Shown one piece after another: positions 1 through 6,929 of a stretch of 6,929 nt of DNA. This stretch comes from Candidatus Poribacteria bacterium. GTDB taxonomy: Bacteria > Poribacteria > DTPJ01 > WJIO01. The notes beneath the pieces were generated by a model, which saw only the letters and a program-made list of their open reading frames with translations, ran no database searches and had not been told where the DNA came from. The DNA lies in NCBI GenBank assembly GCA_014730235.1, contig WJIO01000016.1, forward strand, positions 1 to 6,929, in the 5' to 3' direction. Positions within the stretch are counted from its first letter, which is position 1. Every line of letters starts with the position of its first letter. The position numbers and the translations under genes are program-made.

Positions 1-73
1 CAAAAATGTGACAAAATTTTTATATCCAGGAAGCTATAAAGACATTTTCTTCGACGTGTTGCCTTTTTGCTTT

Positions 74-85
74 ATATCATGATAT
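74..85. promoter_or_regulatory. Perfect 12-bp palindrome, possible operator
   Basis: ATATCATGATAT is a perfect inverted repeat with no spacer. It lies in the brxA leader, overlapping the likely promoter zone and 53 bases before the first brxA start codon. A dimeric repressor could bind such a site. No regulator is identified, and AT-rich DNA gives short palindromes by chance, so the regulatory role is inference. Confidence 0.3.
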
Positions 86-125
86 TTAACAGTGAATAAT
101 TTTACACTTTACGAACGTTCCGGAA

Positions 126-130
126 AGAGG
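126..130 (+). promoter_or_regulatory. Ribosome binding site favouring the brxA start at 138
   Basis: AGAGG lies 7 bases before the ATG at 138 and is a normal Shine-Dalgarno spacing. The alternative ATG at 204, which fits the protein family better, has no purine-rich site before it (the preceding bases are T-rich). This site is the main argument for starting brxA at 138. Confidence 0.55.
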
Positions 131-137
131 TATATTT

Positions 138-797
138 ATGCCTGTTACCCTTTTGCTGTGCTGTTATCTGTTTACAAACGTTTTTTACAAAAGATTTTGC
201 ATCATGCAACCGATATATAAAGCAAACATAACATCAGGTGCGCTGCTTGTTCCTGAAAGCAGAAAAATAGCTGACCTTTTACTCAAAAAGGTATCGGCGG
301 ATGAATGGAAAAAAACTATTGAGGAGGAAAACATCCTCCAGAAGCTAAGTGTATTGTCAGCCAGACAGATATCCCGGCTTATCAGGTCGCGCCTGGAACT
401 GATGACGCCGGAACTGTGGATAATGGTCAGGAACGGTGATTCCCGGTTGGCAACCCATGCCGTTTTTGCTGCGGCCATAAAGCATTCCCGAATCCTGGGC
501 GATTACCTTGACCTGGTGGTCAGGGAACAATTTCGTCGTCTTGAAGAACGTCTGACTCCCAGAATGTGGGATGAATTCCTTCGGACATGCAAGCAGCGGG
601 ATCCGGCAATGGCTGACTTCTCCGTATCTACAGTAAAAAAAATGCGCCGCGTTGTCCATAATATACTCTGGGAAGTAGGATACATCAGGGATACGCGTTC
701 ATGGGAACTAAGGGAGGTGGAAATAGATTCGGCAGTATTGAGTTACCTGGAAAAGAGCAATGAATATTACGTTCTAAAATGTATAAAGGTGTGCTAA
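138..797 (+). CDS. brxA: BREX protein BrxA (DUF1819)
   Basis: BrxA is a small core protein of BREX type 1. It was first described as resembling the NusB antitermination protein and is thought to bind nucleic acid; its exact role in defence is not settled. The family signature is clear at residues 27-43: ANITSGALLVPESRKIA, followed by a mostly helical, charged protein rich in Arg, Lys and Glu. The 219-residue frame from ATG 138 carries a hydrophobic, Cys-rich lead of 22 residues (MPVTLLLCCYLF...) that BrxA proteins normally lack. Starting at ATG 204 (MQPIYKANITSG) gives 197 residues, nearer the family's usual length. I keep 138 because only that codon has a Shine-Dalgarno sequence; 204 remains a real alternative. 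It is the first gene of the operon, and its TAA is one base before the brxB start, which suggests translational coupling. Family assignment is firm; the start is not. Confidence 0.93.
   Translation: MPVTLLLCCYLFTNVFYKRFCIMQPIYKANITSGALLVPESRKIADLLLKKVSADEWKKTIEEENILQKLSVLSARQISRLIRSRLELMTPELWIMVRNGDSRLATHAVFAAAIKHSRILGDYLDLVVREQFRRLEERLTPRMWDEFLRTCKQRDPAMADFSVSTVKKMRRVVHNILWEVGYIRDTRSWELREVEIDSAVLSYLEKSNEYYVLKCIKVC
171..196 (+). repeat. Imperfect 13-bp tandem repeat at the 5' end of brxA
   Basis: TTTACAAACGTTT (171-183) is followed directly by TTTACAAAAGATT (184-196), identical at 11 of 13 positions. It lies between the two candidate brxA starts. A 13-base unit is not a multiple of three, so it is not a protein-level repeat. 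If brxA starts at 204 it would be in the untranslated leader and could bind a regulator; it may equally be chance in AT-rich DNA. Confidence 0.35.
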
Positions 798-798
798 A

Positions 799-1383
799 GT
801 GAGTATCAATAAAACTTTAGATGAGCGGCTGAATGAAATATTACCTACCATAACATCCAGCAATTTTCTACAAAAAAAGGGATTGGGAAACGAAATTCCT
901 TTCCATATATTTGATTATCCACCGGAGGATGAATTACGGGTTCGGGAACATCTGCATTTCCTGATTGACAGGCTGGAAAAGCAATATCCTCACATAAAAG
1001 TCATCCATGTGGAACTTTTCAGGGTAATGATCCAATACCTGGAGGACCTGAATCTCCTTGAAAAGGCCTTTGAAATGGAAGCGCAAAAGGGATCCGAAGC
1101 CCTTTGGAAAGCGCTTTCTGCGTCGGTAAAACCGGAGCGATTCGTAAAGACGATTCTCGCCCGGCAGTTTGACTTTAGCCAATGCCATCTTATCCTGATG
1201 AATGGTGTAGGTAACGTATGGCCCTGGATACGGGCCCATTCCCTGTTGAATAATCTTCAGCAGTTAACAGGTGATGTGCCAATGGTTCTTTTTTATCCCG
1301 GGGGATATGATGGTCAGTCACTTCGTTTGTTTGGCAGACTGGGCGGCGATAATTACTACCGGGCTTTCAGGCTGGTAAAATAA
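799..1383 (+). CDS. brxB: BREX protein BrxB (DUF1788)
   Basis: BrxB is a core protein of BREX type 1 with no known enzymatic activity; it is needed for the system but its mechanism is unclear. At 194 residues it has the usual family length. The C-terminal half holds the recognisable family blocks: GNVWPWIRAHSLLNNLQ at about residues 138-154 and LFYPGGYDGQSLRLFGRLGG at about 165-184, ending in NYYRAFRLVK. No signal peptide or membrane segment is seen, so it is expected in the cytoplasm. Translation starts at GTG 799, one base after the brxA stop, with AAGGTG at 786-791 as ribosome binding site inside the end of brxA. This arrangement implies coupling to brxA translation. The stop is TAA, and brxC starts 13 bases later. 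Confidence 0.94.
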   Translation: MSINKTLDERLNEILPTITSSNFLQKKGLGNEIPFHIFDYPPEDELRVREHLHFLIDRLEKQYPHIKVIHVELFRVMIQYLEDLNLLEKAFEMEAQKGSEALWKALSASVKPERFVKTILARQFDFSQCHLILMNGVGNVWPWIRAHSLLNNLQQLTGDVPMVLFYPGGYDGQSLRLFGRLGGDNYYRAFRLVK

Positions 1384-1384
1384 A

Positions 1385-1391
1385 AGGGAGG
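1385..1391 (+). promoter_or_regulatory. Strong ribosome binding site of brxC
   Basis: AGGGAGG sits 5 bases before ATG 1397 and is the strongest Shine-Dalgarno sequence in the window. It fixes the brxC start and fits a large ATPase that begins with MKIRELFTKDISRPINGVV, the expected BrxC N-terminus. Confidence 0.75.
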
Positions 1392-1396
1392 AATAC

Positions 1397-3070
1397 ATGA
1401 AAATCAGGGAGCTTTTTACCAAGGATATTTCTCGGCCTATCAACGGTGTTGTTAAAGCCGACCAGCAGGATGATAAATCCATCTACCAGGAACTGGAGGA
1501 GTTTGTCGTTACCAGGGAGCTATCAGAGCATCTGGATCGCTTCTTCTCCGTATACCTGCAAGCCCTGGAAAATCCCCGGGATGCCGATGCGGCAGGAAAA
1601 ATGGGCGTCTGGGTTTCCGGATTTTTCGGTTCCGGTAAATCTCACCTCATAAAGGTTCTGCACTATCTCTTTAAGAACCAGATTGTGAAATATGACGGCC
1701 AGGAAAAACAGGCCATAAAGTTCCTTGACGGAAAAATAGCCGATCCGTTCCTGTTTGGTAACATCCAAAAAGCGGTGACAAAAGACGCGGATGTTATCCT
1801 GTTTAATATAGACAGCAAAGCGGACCAAACAAAAAGTGATGATGTGCTTATCAGGGTTTTCCTGAAGGTTCTCAATGAATTGCAGGGATACAGCCCTGAC
1901 TATCCCCATATAGCGCACATGGAGAGATATCTTGATCAGCTCAATAAGTTAGCAGTCTTTGAAGAAAATTTCCGTATGCTGACGGGTCAGGAGTGGAGAG
2001 AAAGCCGCGTCCATTGGCACTTTACCCAGGATAATATTGTGAAAGCCCTTTCGGAAACCCTGGGACAGAGCGAGGAAGCCTGTCAACACTGGGCACAAAG
2101 TGCTGAAGACGACTTTCCCCTTACCATTGAAAACTTCGCCAGGTGGGTGAAAGAATATCTCGACAGCAGGGGATCTGAACATCGCATTTTCTTCTTCGTG
2201 GACGAAGTTGGTCAATTTATCGGGGACAACAGCAAACTGATGCTAAATCTCCAGACCATCACAGAGAACCTGGGAACCCAATGCGGCGGTCGGGCATGGC
2301 TGATTGTAACATCTCAGGAGGATATGGACAAGGCCATTGGATCTCTCAAAAATACAGAGAACAAGGATTTTTCAAAGATACAGGGACGCTTTAACACCCG
2401 GCTTTCTCTGTCAAGCGCCAATACCGACGAGGTAATCCAAAAACGCCTGCTGGAAAAACAGGATAGTGTAATTGATGAACTTGTGGGATTATATGAACCC
2501 AACGCCGACATCCTTGGAAACCAGCTTACTTTTAGCCAGGATACAGGGATGACCCTCCAGGCATATCAGTCTGAGGTTGATTTTGTAAAAAATTATCCCT
2601 TCATACCGTATCAGTTCAAACTGCTTCAAAGGGTATTTGAGGGGGTTCGCAGGGCCGGGGCAACAGGGCTTCATCTATCTCGAGGTGAACGTTCCATGCT
2701 GGACGCCTTCCAACATGCAGGCATCCATGCGGCAGATAAGGATACAGGCGTTCTGGTTCCCCTGTATTGGTTCTATCCGTCCATTGAGAGTTTTCTGGAT
2801 ACGGCTGTAAGACGCACTATTCAACAGGCGGCAGAGCTTCCATCATTGGAGGAGTTTGATATAAACATCTTCCAGACGCTGTTTATGATCCGATACATTG
2901 AGGAGATTAAGGGTAACGTGAATAACCTGGTTACCCTGTGTATTGACCACATTGACTCGGATAAATTCGTCCTGCGAAAGAAGGTAGAGGAATCCCTTAG
3001 TCGTCTCGAAAAAGAAACCCTCATATCCCGAAGCGGTGAAAACTATTTCTTCCTGACCAACGAAGAGTAG
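1397..3070 (+). CDS. brxC: BrxC N-terminal part, P-loop ATPase, ends at premature TAG
   Basis: BrxC is the large P-loop ATPase of BREX type 1, related to PglY, and is required for phage defence; it acts in the cytoplasm with the other Brx proteins and PglX. This 557-residue part contains the whole visible nucleotide-binding core: Walker A GFFGSGKS at residues 75-82, and a hydrophobic strand ending in an acidic pair, IFFFVDE at 264-270, as Walker B. A later block, YPFIPYQFKLLQRVFEGVRR, with GATGLHLSRGERSML after it, is typical of this ATPase family. The fragment stops at TAG 3068-3070, after FFLTNEE, where relatives continue. If made alone, it would be an ATPase lacking roughly half of the protein and could be unstable or interfere with a complex. 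It has its own strong ribosome binding site. Confidence 0.9.
   Translation: MKIRELFTKDISRPINGVVKADQQDDKSIYQELEEFVVTRELSEHLDRFFSVYLQALENPRDADAAGKMGVWVSGFFGSGKSHLIKVLHYLFKNQIVKYDGQEKQAIKFLDGKIADPFLFGNIQKAVTKDADVILFNIDSKADQTKSDDVLIRVFLKVLNELQGYSPDYPHIAHMERYLDQLNKLAVFEENFRMLTGQEWRESRVHWHFTQDNIVKALSETLGQSEEACQHWAQSAEDDFPLTIENFARWVKEYLDSRGSEHRIFFFVDEVGQFIGDNSKLMLNLQTITENLGTQCGGRAWLIVTSQEDMDKAIGSLKNTENKDFSKIQGRFNTRLSLSSANTDEVIQKRLLEKQDSVIDELVGLYEPNADILGNQLTFSQDTGMTLQAYQSEVDFVKNYPFIPYQFKLLQRVFEGVRRAGATGLHLSRGERSMLDAFQHAGIHAADKDTGVLVPLYWFYPSIESFLDTAVRRTIQQAAELPSLEEFDINIFQTLFMIRYIEEIKGNVNNLVTLCIDHIDSDKFVLRKKVEESLSRLEKETLISRSGENYFFLTNEE
3068..3070 (+). other. In-frame amber codon inside brxC
   Basis: TAG follows GAA GAG and precedes GAA ATA AGC in the brxC frame. 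brxA, brxB and the end of brxC all use TAA, so this is the only TAG that ends a reading frame of a real gene here. A single C-to-T change from CAG explains it. Confidence 0.85.
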
Positions 3071-3094
3071 GAAATAAGCCGGGAAATAAAGAAC

Positions 3095-4948
3095 GTGGAG
3101 CTGGAATCCGGTACAGAAAGCCGACACCTGGGCAGGATAATCATTGACGATATATATCACAGCTTAAAAAAACATCGCTACTCAGAGACGGGCAAGGACT
3201 TTAATGTAAATTTCCTGTGCGATACGCAGCCTATAGGCGGATTAACCGATAAAAGTCTGTCAGTGTCGCTAATATCGCCTTTTTGCGAAAACTACGATCA
3301 ATATAACCAGTCCAAATGTACTCTGGACAGCACAGAAGACAACGGGATTATACTCATACATCTTCCTGAAGATGACAAACTATCGTCAGAGATCAGGATT
3401 TACCTTCAGACGGATAAATACATATCCCGGAAGAACGATGGAAACCCGGAAGTTCAGCAGATACTGCGAAATCGCAAGGATGAAAATCAAGAGCGTAAAA
3501 CCAGGATTGTGGAAGCTGTAAAAGAAATGCTTGCCGATTCGGAATATTATATCAACGGACAAAAATTCGATCCCGGTACCGATGAAGCCCAAAAAGCCCT
3601 TGCTGGTGCTATGGATTATCTTGTAGAAAACACATACAAAAAAATGGCATACATTGAGCACCCATGCTCTGATCCCCAGAAGGAGATCCAGTCTATTCTA
3701 AAAAAGGACGATATTACCGGGGACCTGGTGAACCTTAATGTAGCGGAGAATAACCCCAGGGCTATTACAGAAGTGCGGGATTATATAAGCAATTGTTCAG
3801 CCAGTAGCTTGCAGATGCTAGTTGATAGTCTGATCAGGGATCGCTATGGTTCCCGACCCTATGGCTGGAATGAATGGGAGACTTTGTTAATACTGGTCAA
3901 ACTATTTGTCGCCGGAGAGATCCAGTTTATCAACAATAATGGAGTAGTTAAAAAGGAAGACTTGTCCGAACTTGTTGTCAGGAAAGTAAGTAACTGGAAA
4001 AAATTGACTATTAAACAGCGCAAAAAGGTGGATACAGAAAAGATAGAATCTGTGCGAAAGCTTGGTCAGTCGCTGTTTAGCGAGATGGGGCCTGATAAAG
4101 AGGATGCCCTGGTGGAATTTTATAGAAATCACTTTCAGACATGGGAGGAGGATCTTAAGGGATATGAAAAATTAGCTGAAACCGGCTTCTATCCGGGAGC
4201 AGACACAATTAGCGATGGCATTACTTTATGCAGAAAAATTTTAATCGCAAATGAAAACTTTGATTTTATATCCCGAATCGCTGAGAACAGGGACGACCTT
4301 CTGGATTTTGCGGATGAATACCATGAAGTTAATAATTTCTATTCCACCCAGATAAAGGTATGGGATAAGCTTCGCAACGCTAAAGCCCGATTTAGTATAA
4401 ACAAATCCATGCTTGATAAGAACCCGGATGCGCAGACAGCGCTGACCCGTATGAATGAAATCCTGGAAGCCCCTGAGCCTTATTCCATTATCAAGGAAGG
4501 GGATGACCTGATAAATACGGTAGACAAAATTAACAGTGATTTACTGAAGAAAAAGCGGGAAAAGCTTTCCAAATATATTGGCGCGTTGACAAAGGAACTC
4601 AGGAGTAAGGGGGAATCCCTGGAATGTGATGAAGAAATAATAAAATCTTCTCAGAAATCGCTGGTAGGTTTCAAGGAAAAAGCGTCGGATGAAGGCTCTA
4701 TCTCCAATATCCAGTATTTTAAAAATGAAGCGAATAAAGCCTTTAAACGCGAGTTAAAGCGCATGGCCGATAGTCAGGATAAGCCAGGCGCTGAAACGAA
4801 AGTGAAAGAGATGAAGGTGGTTAAGCCTGCCGCTCTTAATAAAAAGGTCTTCCTTGAAACAGAGGCTGATGTGGACGACTTTGTGAATGTAGTTGAAAAT
4901 GAACTAAAGCAGGCCATAAAGGATGGCAAGAGGATCATGATAGAATAA
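3095..4948 (+). CDS. brxC: BrxC C-terminal part, downstream of premature TAG
   Basis: This 617-residue frame from GTG 3095 is the C-terminal half of BrxC, in the same frame as the N-terminal half. It has no Walker motifs of its own, so it is not a separate ATPase. It is highly charged and mostly helical by composition; a Lys/Glu-rich, probably coiled-coil stretch begins at about residue 485 (LLKKKREKLSKYIGALTKEL) and runs to about residue 560. The GTG is merely the first possible start after the TAG. The only purine-rich sequence before it, GGGA at 3081-3084, is 10 bases away and weak, so independent translation is doubtful. BrxC-like coding continues upstream of the GTG to 3071, which argues that 3095 is not a natural start. 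The stop TAA at 4946-4948 lies 9 bases before the pglX ATG. Confidence 0.85.
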   Translation: MELESGTESRHLGRIIIDDIYHSLKKHRYSETGKDFNVNFLCDTQPIGGLTDKSLSVSLISPFCENYDQYNQSKCTLDSTEDNGIILIHLPEDDKLSSEIRIYLQTDKYISRKNDGNPEVQQILRNRKDENQERKTRIVEAVKEMLADSEYYINGQKFDPGTDEAQKALAGAMDYLVENTYKKMAYIEHPCSDPQKEIQSILKKDDITGDLVNLNVAENNPRAITEVRDYISNCSASSLQMLVDSLIRDRYGSRPYGWNEWETLLILVKLFVAGEIQFINNNGVVKKEDLSELVVRKVSNWKKLTIKQRKKVDTEKIESVRKLGQSLFSEMGPDKEDALVEFYRNHFQTWEEDLKGYEKLAETGFYPGADTISDGITLCRKILIANENFDFISRIAENRDDLLDFADEYHEVNNFYSTQIKVWDKLRNAKARFSINKSMLDKNPDAQTALTRMNEILEAPEPYSIIKEGDDLINTVDKINSDLLKKKREKLSKYIGALTKELRSKGESLECDEEIIKSSQKSLVGFKEKASDEGSISNIQYFKNEANKAFKRELKRMADSQDKPGAETKVKEMKVVKPAALNKKVFLETEADVDDFVNVVENELKQAIKDGKRIMIE

Positions 4949-4957
4949 GGTATACAA

Positions 4958-6929
4958 ATGAATAAAAAGATAATTGAAAAATACGCTCCCGAAGCAAGAA
5001 AAGCGTTTATCCAGGCGGTAAAAGATAAAGCCGCTCTTTATGGTATTACGGAAAAAAAGGTTCTTCCCTGCGAGGTCAAGGGCGATTTCGCATTCATTAA
5101 CGGGCGGCCCTTCCCCGGAATAGTTTATACCCAGCGGGATGAACTTCTGACGCGGATCAAAGACCACAGTTTCGGTTATATCATGGAGGAAACAGCATAT
5201 ACATGGTTTAACCGCTTTGCCGCCATCCGTTTCATGGAGATAAACGGCTACCTGTCTCACGGCTACCGGGTATTAAGCCATCCCCAGGGGCATAGCATCC
5301 CTGAGATCGTGGAAAAAGCCCAATTTGTAAACATGCCCGGTCTGGATAAGGACCAGGTTATCCGGCTTAAGATGGCCGGCGACAGGGATGAAGAGCTTTA
5401 CACCTGGCTTCTTATAGCCCAGTGCAACGAAATGAGCGCAGCCATGCCTTTCCTGTTTGAGAAGGTTGACGACCCTACGGAGCTTCTCCTACCCCATAAC
5501 CTGCTTCATACCGGCTCCGTCATCCGGGATATGGTGGAGACCATACCCGAGGAGGACTGGCGGGAGGTGGAGATCATCGGCTGGCTTTACCAGTTCTATA
5601 TTTCCGAGAAGAAGGACGAACTTATGGCGGCGAAGAAAGCCTATAAATCTGAGGATATTCCCGCGGTAACACAGCTTTTTACGCCCAACTGGATCGTCAA
5701 ATATCTGGTTCAGAACTCCCTGGGCGCAAAGTGGCTAAGGACATATCCCAATTCCAGCCTTAAAGATAAGATGGAGTATTACATCGAACCGGCGGAGCAG
5801 ACGCCGGAAGTTATGGAAGAACTCAAAAGGATAACGCCGTCATCCCTGAATCCGGAAGAGCTGACAGTCATGGACCCGGCCTGCGGCTCCGGACATATTC
5901 TGGCGGAAGCCTATGACCTGATGAAGGAGATATACCTGGAACGGGGTTACAGGAAGCGGGATATCCCCCGGCTTATCCTGGAGAAGAACCTGTTCGGTCT
6001 GGAGATAGACGACCGGGCTGCCCAGTTGGCCGGATTTGCCCTCATGATGAAGGCCCGGAGTGACGACAGGGAGATATTTGGGCGGAAGGTGCAGCCAAAT
6101 GTGGTGGTTATTAAAGGCAAAAGATTAGGCGCAGAGGCACAGAGATACAAAGGGACAGAGAATGGGGAAAATTCTTTGTGCCTTAGCGCCTCTGAGCCTT
6201 TGTATCTTCTTTTTGAAAACGCTGACACCTTCGGGTCTCTAATCCGTATTCCGCATAGTTTGAAAAAGAATCTGCCTGTTATAAAAGAGGAAATTGATGA
6301 ACTGGAGAAAAAAGGCGATCTTTTATCTTACAATATTATTGAGGATATGAGACATATCGTAAGACAGACAGAGCTTTTATCATGTAAATATGATGTAGTT
6401 GTGGCCAATCCGCCATATATGGGCAGAAGAAAAATGAATCTGAAGCTAAAAAAGCTGGCGGATAAGGAATATCCCAATACAAAGTCGGATCTTTTTGCCA
6501 TGTTTATTGAACGCGGTTTTGAAATGGCAAAATCCGATACAGGCCATAATGCAATTGTTACCATGCAAAGCTGGATGTTTCTATCTTCCTATCATAATAT
6601 GAGAGAAAGCTTAATTAATTTCTCTGCAACTCGGAATATGGTGCATATGTCGAATGGTGTTATGGGTATTGCATTTGGGACAAGTGCCACCATTTGGTTT
6701 AATGCCAGATTACCGTCATATAAAGGTAGTTTTTCTTATGTTGATTATAGTGACCTATCACCTGATAATGTTCCAATAGAATTCCCAATAAAGAATGATA
6801 GGTTAAGAGAAGCCTCTTCTGAAGATCTCAAAAAGATACCTGGTTCGCCTATTGCATATTGGGTGAGTGATAAGGTAAGAGAAACATTTCAGGAGTCAGT
6901 AAAACTATCGGAAATTGCAGAGACTAGGC
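4958..6929 (+). CDS. pglX: BREX type 1 adenine-specific DNA methyltransferase PglX, 3' end cut by window edge
   Basis: PglX transfers a methyl group from S-adenosylmethionine to the N6 of adenine in a short non-palindromic site, marking host DNA so that BREX blocks only unmodified phage. The frame is open from ATG 4958 to the edge, 657 residues seen of about 1200 usual. AAGG at 4947-4950, overlapping the brxC stop, supports this start. A family block FTPNWIVKYLVQNSLGAKWL lies at residues 241-260. Motif I for cofactor binding is DPACGSG at 306-312, and catalytic motif IV is NPPY at 484-487 (VVVANPPYMGRRK), the form expected of N6-adenine methylases. The target-recognition region should follow motif IV and is only partly present. 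Between the motifs, residues about 389-419 include a translated palindromic repeat. GC content falls sharply after about 6240. No stop or frameshift is seen. Confidence 0.94.
   Translation, partial: MNKKIIEKYAPEARKAFIQAVKDKAALYGITEKKVLPCEVKGDFAFINGRPFPGIVYTQRDELLTRIKDHSFGYIMEETAYTWFNRFAAIRFMEINGYLSHGYRVLSHPQGHSIPEIVEKAQFVNMPGLDKDQVIRLKMAGDRDEELYTWLLIAQCNEMSAAMPFLFEKVDDPTELLLPHNLLHTGSVIRDMVETIPEEDWREVEIIGWLYQFYISEKKDELMAAKKAYKSEDIPAVTQLFTPNWIVKYLVQNSLGAKWLRTYPNSSLKDKMEYYIEPAEQTPEVMEELKRITPSSLNPEELTVMDPACGSGHILAEAYDLMKEIYLERGYRKRDIPRLILEKNLFGLEIDDRAAQLAGFALMMKARSDDREIFGRKVQPNVVVIKGKRLGAEAQRYKGTENGENSLCLSASEPLYLLFENADTFGSLIRIPHSLKKNLPVIKEEIDELEKKGDLLSYNIIEDMRHIVRQTELLSCKYDVVVANPPYMGRRKMNLKLKKLADKEYPNTKSDLFAMFIERGFEMAKSDTGHNAIVTMQSWMFLSSYHNMRESLINFSATRNMVHMSNGVMGIAFGTSATIWFNARLPSYKGSFSYVDYSDLSPDNVPIEFPIKNDRLREASSEDLKKIPGSPIAYWVSDKVRETFQESVKLSEIAETR
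6143..6207. repeat. Imperfect palindromic repeat inside pglX
   Basis: AGATACAAAGGGACAGAG (6143-6160) pairs with CTCTGAGCCTTTGTATCT (6190-6207): 16 of 18 positions match around a 29-base loop. The surrounding GCGCAGAGGCACAGAG and CTTTGTGCCTTAGCGCCTCTG belong to a low-complexity style (runs of AGAGGCACAGAG and CTTTGTGCC) that I recall from dispersed palindromic repeats, often seen as spurious proteins containing words like LYLCASAP. The opposite strand here indeed reads SVPLYLCASAPNLLP. The element probably spans about 6122-6210. It keeps the pglX frame and adds a peptide (RYKGTENGENSLCLSASEPL) that looks unlike the flanking enzyme, which resumes its family pattern at ENADTFGSLI. Translated insertion of palindromes is known for Rickettsia palindromic elements; relation to those is not claimed. 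Confidence 0.7.

What the first reader, a model, noticed from the sequence alone, without database searches (positions are those of the whole stretch)
3068..3070. brxC split by one in-frame amber codon
Both sides of the TAG are BrxC in the same frame, and the join restores an 1183-residue protein. The codon falls in a stretch (LTNEE-x-EISREIKN) where glutamine is expected, so one C-to-T change accounts for it. Possible meanings are a recent loss of BREX function, a sequencing error, amber suppression by a host tRNA, or a recoded TAG. The first two are the most likely. The rest of the operon shown is intact, so any inactivation must be young.
Basis: partly seen in the sequence, partly recalled or inferred. 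Interest (0 to 1): 0.7.

Follow-up and report, generated by a model that had tools for sequence, protein, structure and literature searches.

The report
Amber-interrupted brxC phage-defence gene
One gene of a bacterial anti-phage (BREX) operon carries a single stop codon in its middle, most likely an ordinary recent inactivating mutation (less likely an assembly error), and the host genome gives no sign that it reads this codon as an amino acid.

Summary
Window 1397-4948 (+) is brxC with one in-frame TAG at 3068-3070 (codon 558 of 1183). Both halves match BrxC models independently, and no other lesion lies in the frame. The two closest relatives found have Gln at this column (codon CAG in the one checked); four more distant ones have Arg. 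A single C-to-T change is therefore the simplest origin.

Recoding or suppression is not supported. The bin has an intact prfA (RF1). No CUA-anticodon tRNA and no pylS above cut-off were found. TAG ends 67 of 391 long ORFs in 505 kb sampled, and no gene there is plausibly read through TAG.

The stop sits at the boundary between the AAA+/first-wHTH module and the alpha+beta domain. The product (1-557) nearly equals the published BrxC 1-551 construct. That construct abolishes restriction and methylation in Acinetobacter BREX, but leaves partial restriction without methylation in E. fergusonii BREX. Broken brxC genes recur elsewhere (plasmids; an IMG/VR contig).

Best reading: a young nonsense mutation disabling BREX (about 0.7), then a base-call or assembly error (about 0.18). 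A functional two-chain BrxC is not excluded (about 0.06). Interest is low.

The parts
3068..3070 (+). In-frame amber codon (TAG), codon 558 of brxC
   Evidence: Gln in L033 (codon CAG) and L110, Arg (CGG/CGC) in four other homologues
1397..3067 (+). brxC 5' part, 557 aa: N-terminal AAA+ ATPase and first wHTH module
   Evidence: PADLOC BrxC E=2.1e-266; aligns with PDB 9zll and 9zn5 over residues 3-557
3071..4948 (+). brxC 3' part: alpha+beta (4th) domain, second wHTH, helical domain, C-terminus; 625 aa plus TAA stop
   Evidence: PADLOC BrxC E=8.3e-128; Pfam PF25796, PF25791, PF25792
3095..3097 (+). Possible GTG re-initiation codon (residue 567) at the edge of the 4th domain
   Evidence: duplex of its upstream 20 nt with the anti-SD -4.3 kcal/mol, against -11.3 for brxC and -4.0 for pglX
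204..797 (+). brxA (ORF opens at 138; homologues suggest the start at 204)
   Evidence: PF08849 E=1.8e-48; L033 BrxA begins at the equivalent residue
799..1383 (+). brxB
   Evidence: PF08747 E=1.1e-38
4958..6928 (+). pglX/brxX, 5' part, cut by the contig end
   Evidence: PADLOC PglX E=8.4e-245, profile 1-664 of 1174; no continuation found in the bin

Best explanation
A single nonsense substitution, most simply C to T in a Gln codon, has interrupted brxC of a type 1-like BREX operon in an uncultured bacterium with a standard genetic code. Translation is expected to stop at residue 557 and give a free AAA+/wHTH1 module. By published work on the near-identical truncation (BrxC 1-551), this module can still bind BrxB:PglZ but lacks DNA binding and the C-terminal dimerisation domain. 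The expected outcome is loss of normal BREX function (no methylation; restriction lost or reduced). Shown: the stop, the frame, the domain position, RF1 and normal TAG use. Inferred: that the base is real, that no full-length protein is made, and the phenotype.
For: One stop only, no frameshift, both halves strong BrxC. Nearest relatives have Gln there, codon CAG in L033. prfA intact at 354 aa. TAG ends 48/257 ORFs of at least 250 codons and 67/391 of at least 150 codons; none of the 4 TAG candidates among 28 same-frame junctions looks like read-through. No CUA tRNA among the tRNA genes found, and no suppressor tRNA in a targeted anticodon-loop pattern search. PylS hits only below cut-off. BrxC 1-551 loses restriction and methylation in Acinetobacter BREX (PMC13326643). 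Broken brxC recurs: IS3 insertion (L117), multiple frameshifts (L115, L116) and a frameshift in L110.
Against: No reads were available, so the base call is unverified. The genome is a draft bin (91.6% complete, 4.8% contaminated), so an unbinned suppressor tRNA is possible. The contig's composition is atypical for the bin (only 2 of 47 chunks have a lower tetranucleotide correlation; GC 0.443 against a median of 0.407), so host-wide evidence may not fully apply. The E. fergusonii 1-551 truncation kept intermediate restriction, so 'inactivated' is not certain.
Confidence: 0.7

Rival explanations
1. Base-call, assembly or strain-mixture artefact: the real population consensus has a sense codon.
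For: The source is a draft bin on a short 6.9-kb contig. The change is a single transition, and nothing else is wrong in the gene.
Against: In 505 kb of the same bin (125,038 codons in ORFs of at least 250 codons) no comparable in-gene nonsense interruption stood out, so consensus nonsense errors are rare. This control may not hold if this contig has lower coverage.
Confidence: 0.18
2. A working two-chain BrxC: the ribosome stops at 557 and re-initiates at GTG 3095, making an AAA+/wHTH1 subunit and a separate DNA-binding and dimerisation subunit.
For: The stop falls at a known domain boundary: the N-module 1-551 is independently foldable and binds BrxB:PglZ, and Pfam domain 4 starts at residue 568. 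GTG at residue 567 has a weak SD-like site comparable in score with those of brxB and pglX. The downstream frame is undamaged.
Against: All five relatives compared in full have one unbroken chain. The closest relatives have Gln in an otherwise conserved block, with no linker, extra start or overlap. The 24-nt gap lacks a strong start. I found no report of a two-chain BrxC.
Confidence: 0.06
3. Amber suppression or low-level read-through by a host tRNA makes some full-length BrxC.
For: Near-cognate Gln tRNA genes are present (two CUG, one UUG), and a Gln insertion would match the nearest relatives.
Against: RF1 is intact. No CUA tRNA was found. TAG is used as a normal terminator.
Confidence: 0.05
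4. TAG is reassigned to an amino acid (Gln or Pyl) in this organism.
For: The frame continues through one TAG in a conserved gene.
Against: BrxC uses 55 CAG/CAA codons and one TAG; the other window genes have no internal TAG. RF1 is present, TAG is a common terminator, pylS is below cut-off.
Confidence: 0.01

Closest known systems
Type 1 BREX brxA-brxB-brxC-pglX operon
   Same: Gene order and family membership of all four genes. The closest relative, L033 (an Omnitrophica MAG), has the same order with an unbroken brxC.
   Different: brxC is interrupted by TAG; pglZ and brxL are not on this contig.
Engineered BrxC 1-551 truncations of Acinetobacter and E. fergusonii BREX (PMC13326643)
   Same: The predicted amber product ends about six residues after the same domain boundary.
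   Different: Those were built in the laboratory; here it is a natural allele in an uncultured bacterium, and the phenotype is unknown.
Naturally disabled BREX loci: Salmonella StySA brxC/pglZ alleles (PMC9009780) and Acinetobacter plasmids with IS-interrupted or frameshifted brxC
   Same: Loss of BREX function through lesions in brxC.
   Different: StySA brxC carries C-terminal substitutions, the plasmids carry an IS or frameshifts; here it is one nonsense codon.

Membership tests
BrxC (BREX P-loop ATPase) | Full-length match to a BrxC profile | tested here: met
   Read-through protein matches PDLC02471 positions 1-1189 of 1190, 1335 bits
BrxC (BREX P-loop ATPase) | Walker A motif and domains: 4th domain, wHTH, helical | tested here: met
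   GFFGSGKS in the N part; PF25796, PF25791, PF25792 in the C part
BrxC (BREX P-loop ATPase) | Encoded as one uninterrupted chain | tested here: not met
   TAG at codon 558
Type 1 BREX operon | brxA, brxB, brxC, pglX in order | tested here: met
Type 1 BREX operon | pglZ and brxL present | tested here: inconclusive
   The contig ends inside pglX. PglZ-domain hits elsewhere in the bin match PADLOC PglZ models only weakly. brxL was not searched.
Amber recoding (TAG to Gln or Pyl) | CUA tRNA, loss or altered role of RF1, frequent internal TAG | tested here: not met
Nonsense-mutated pseudogene | Premature stop where homologues have a sense codon | tested here: met
Nonsense-mutated pseudogene | Base verified by reads and no functional product | not testable with these tools
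   No reads or proteome available

The most novel reading that the evidence does not exclude
BrxC split by stop-and-restart into two cooperating chains at the AAA+/wHTH1 to alpha+beta domain boundary, giving a natural two-subunit BrxC.
Probability: 0.06. Interest if true: 0.45.

Novelty: new member of a known kind. Interest (0 to 1): 0.15.

Why it matters
As a nonsense allele it is one more example of BREX being switched off by mutation. Its position makes it a natural counterpart of the BrxC 1-551 construct, whose effect differs between two tested BREX systems. If both halves were made, it would show that the ATPase module and the DNA-binding arm can work as separate chains.

Tried and rejected
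TAG reassignment: rejected on RF1, terminal TAG use and no plausible internal TAG in 505 kb sampled. The 'TAA inside prfA' flag was the stop of the gene just before the start codon, not a lesion. A second brxC copy in the bin: only a distant P-loop relative at C227. Another strain of the same species: none available; the only same-order genome has no brxC. Finding the rest of pglX in the bin: not found. A search for split BrxC in a wider clade covered one genome only and is uninformative.

Full report
Observation. The window holds brxA (ORF from 138, probable start 204), brxB (799-1383), brxC (1397-4948) and the 5' part of pglX (4958 to the contig end), all on the + strand. brxC has a single in-frame TAG at 3068-3070, codon 558 of 1183 codons before the TAA. 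The two halves match consecutive parts of one BrxC profile (positions 1-547 and 549-1189 of 1190), and the whole scores 1335 bits. The finding is confirmed as described.

Residue at the site. In an alignment with five homologues the surrounding block is LTNEE-x-(D/E)(I/V). x is Gln in the nearest homologue (L033, an Omnitrophica MAG, 57% identical, codon CAG) and Arg (CGG or CGC) in L043, Synechocystis, Vibrio and Polaromonas. A further relative in IMG/VR (L110) also has Gln. The simplest path is therefore one transition from a Gln codon.

Is TAG read as an amino acid here? The genome bin (5.53 Mb, 451 contigs, 91.6% complete, 4.8% contaminated) encodes an intact RF1 of 354 aa. Forty tRNA genes were found by covariance model. 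ARAGORN read their anticodons and none is CUA. A targeted pattern for a CUA anticodon loop followed by a T-loop gave six hits: two lie in ordinary tRNA-Arg and tRNA-Asp genes, and the others are in no tRNA. PylS hits are all below cut-off. In 505 kb of sampled sequence TAG ends 67 of 391 ORFs of at least 150 codons. Of 28 places where coding-like sequence continues in frame across a stop, four are TAG, and by inspection none looks like read-through; three have a start codon within seven codons of the stop, the fourth within 23. brxC itself uses 40 CAG and 15 CAA codons. Recoding is rejected for practical purposes. Suppression is unlikely, with the caveats that the bin is incomplete and that this contig is compositionally atypical (GC 0.443 against a median of 0.407; only 2 of 47 chunks have a lower tetranucleotide correlation).

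Real mutation or artefact? No reads are available. In the sampled 125,038 codons of long ORFs no comparable internal nonsense lesion stood out, apart from the two TGA cases noted in passing. This makes a consensus error less likely than a real change but does not exclude it on this contig. Real brxC lesions recur in nature: an Acinetobacter baumannii plasmid has an IS3 insertion (L117), two A. pittii plasmid records have brxC broken across several frames (L115, L116; sequencing errors are possible there), and the IMG/VR relative has a frameshift at about position 5190 (L110). If brxC were unconstrained, the absence of further lesions bounds the divergence since then to about 0.6-2.2%, depending on the assumed indel rate. 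This is a rough bound.

What the truncated product would do. The stop lies at the boundary between the AAA+/wHTH1 module and the alpha+beta domain: PF25796 starts at residue 568, and PDB 9zll and 9zn5 align over residues 3-557. In PMC13326643 the equivalent BrxC 1-551 binds BrxB:PglZ, shows ATP-dependent dimerisation, does not bind DNA and has reduced ATPase activity. In Acinetobacter BREX, truncations lose both restriction and methylation. In E. fergusonii BREX, 1-551 gave intermediate restriction, no methylation and slow growth. In Salmonella StySA, C-terminal brxC changes removed restriction but allowed methylation (PMC9009780). The most probable effect is loss of normal BREX function, but the direction (silent or partly active) depends on the system.

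The two-chain possibility. A GTG at 3095, residue 567, could restart translation just before the 4th domain. Its SD-like score (-4.3 kcal/mol) is similar to those of brxB and pglX and far below that of brxC. The relatives compared in full have one chain. I give it 6%.

Verdict. This is most likely an ordinary, young nonsense mutation in a phage-defence gene. It is of low interest, with a clear read-level test that was not available here.

Noticed in passing
L073:8193-8861 (-) and L093:560-1273 (-), own genome contigs C339 and C248; tRNA-SeC at C397:517-611 (-): Two paralogous CBM_4_9 proteins (hydrophobic N-termini, probably secreted) each carry an in-frame TGA in the same context (KGG-TGA-GCD), followed by the same AAGCGA-GTA-TCGCTT hairpin. 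The bin has a tRNA-SeC gene (UCA), so they are candidate selenoproteins of an unusual kind; shared pseudogene ancestry is not excluded.
   Followed up: partly
6129-6207: An in-frame palindromic insertion inside pglX (18-nt arms 6143-6160 and 6190-6207, 89% complementary), in a stretch where L033 and L110 have unrelated sequence. It resembles a palindromic repeat element inserted in a coding gene. No second copy was found in the loci held at the time.
   Followed up: partly
L110 (IMGVR_UViG_3300029959_001261) about 5185-5191: The brxC of this BREX-bearing contig, listed as viral, is broken by a frameshift at about codon 397; the operon is 78% identical in DNA to L033.
   Followed up: partly
L002 (C227:13521 onward) and L083 (C366): The same bin encodes a second, distant BrxC/PglY-like P-loop ATPase and a separate 751-aa PglZ-domain protein, possibly parts of another BREX-related system.
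   Followed up: no
L082 (C67:16557-17141, -): A response regulator with a PglZ domain (519 aa) next to a histidine kinase and an MreB-like gene; it resembles PorX-type regulators (the resemblance is from memory).
   Followed up: no
window 1-6929: The contig is richer in GC and atypical in tetranucleotides for its bin, which suggests horizontal acquisition or mis-binning.
   Followed up: partly
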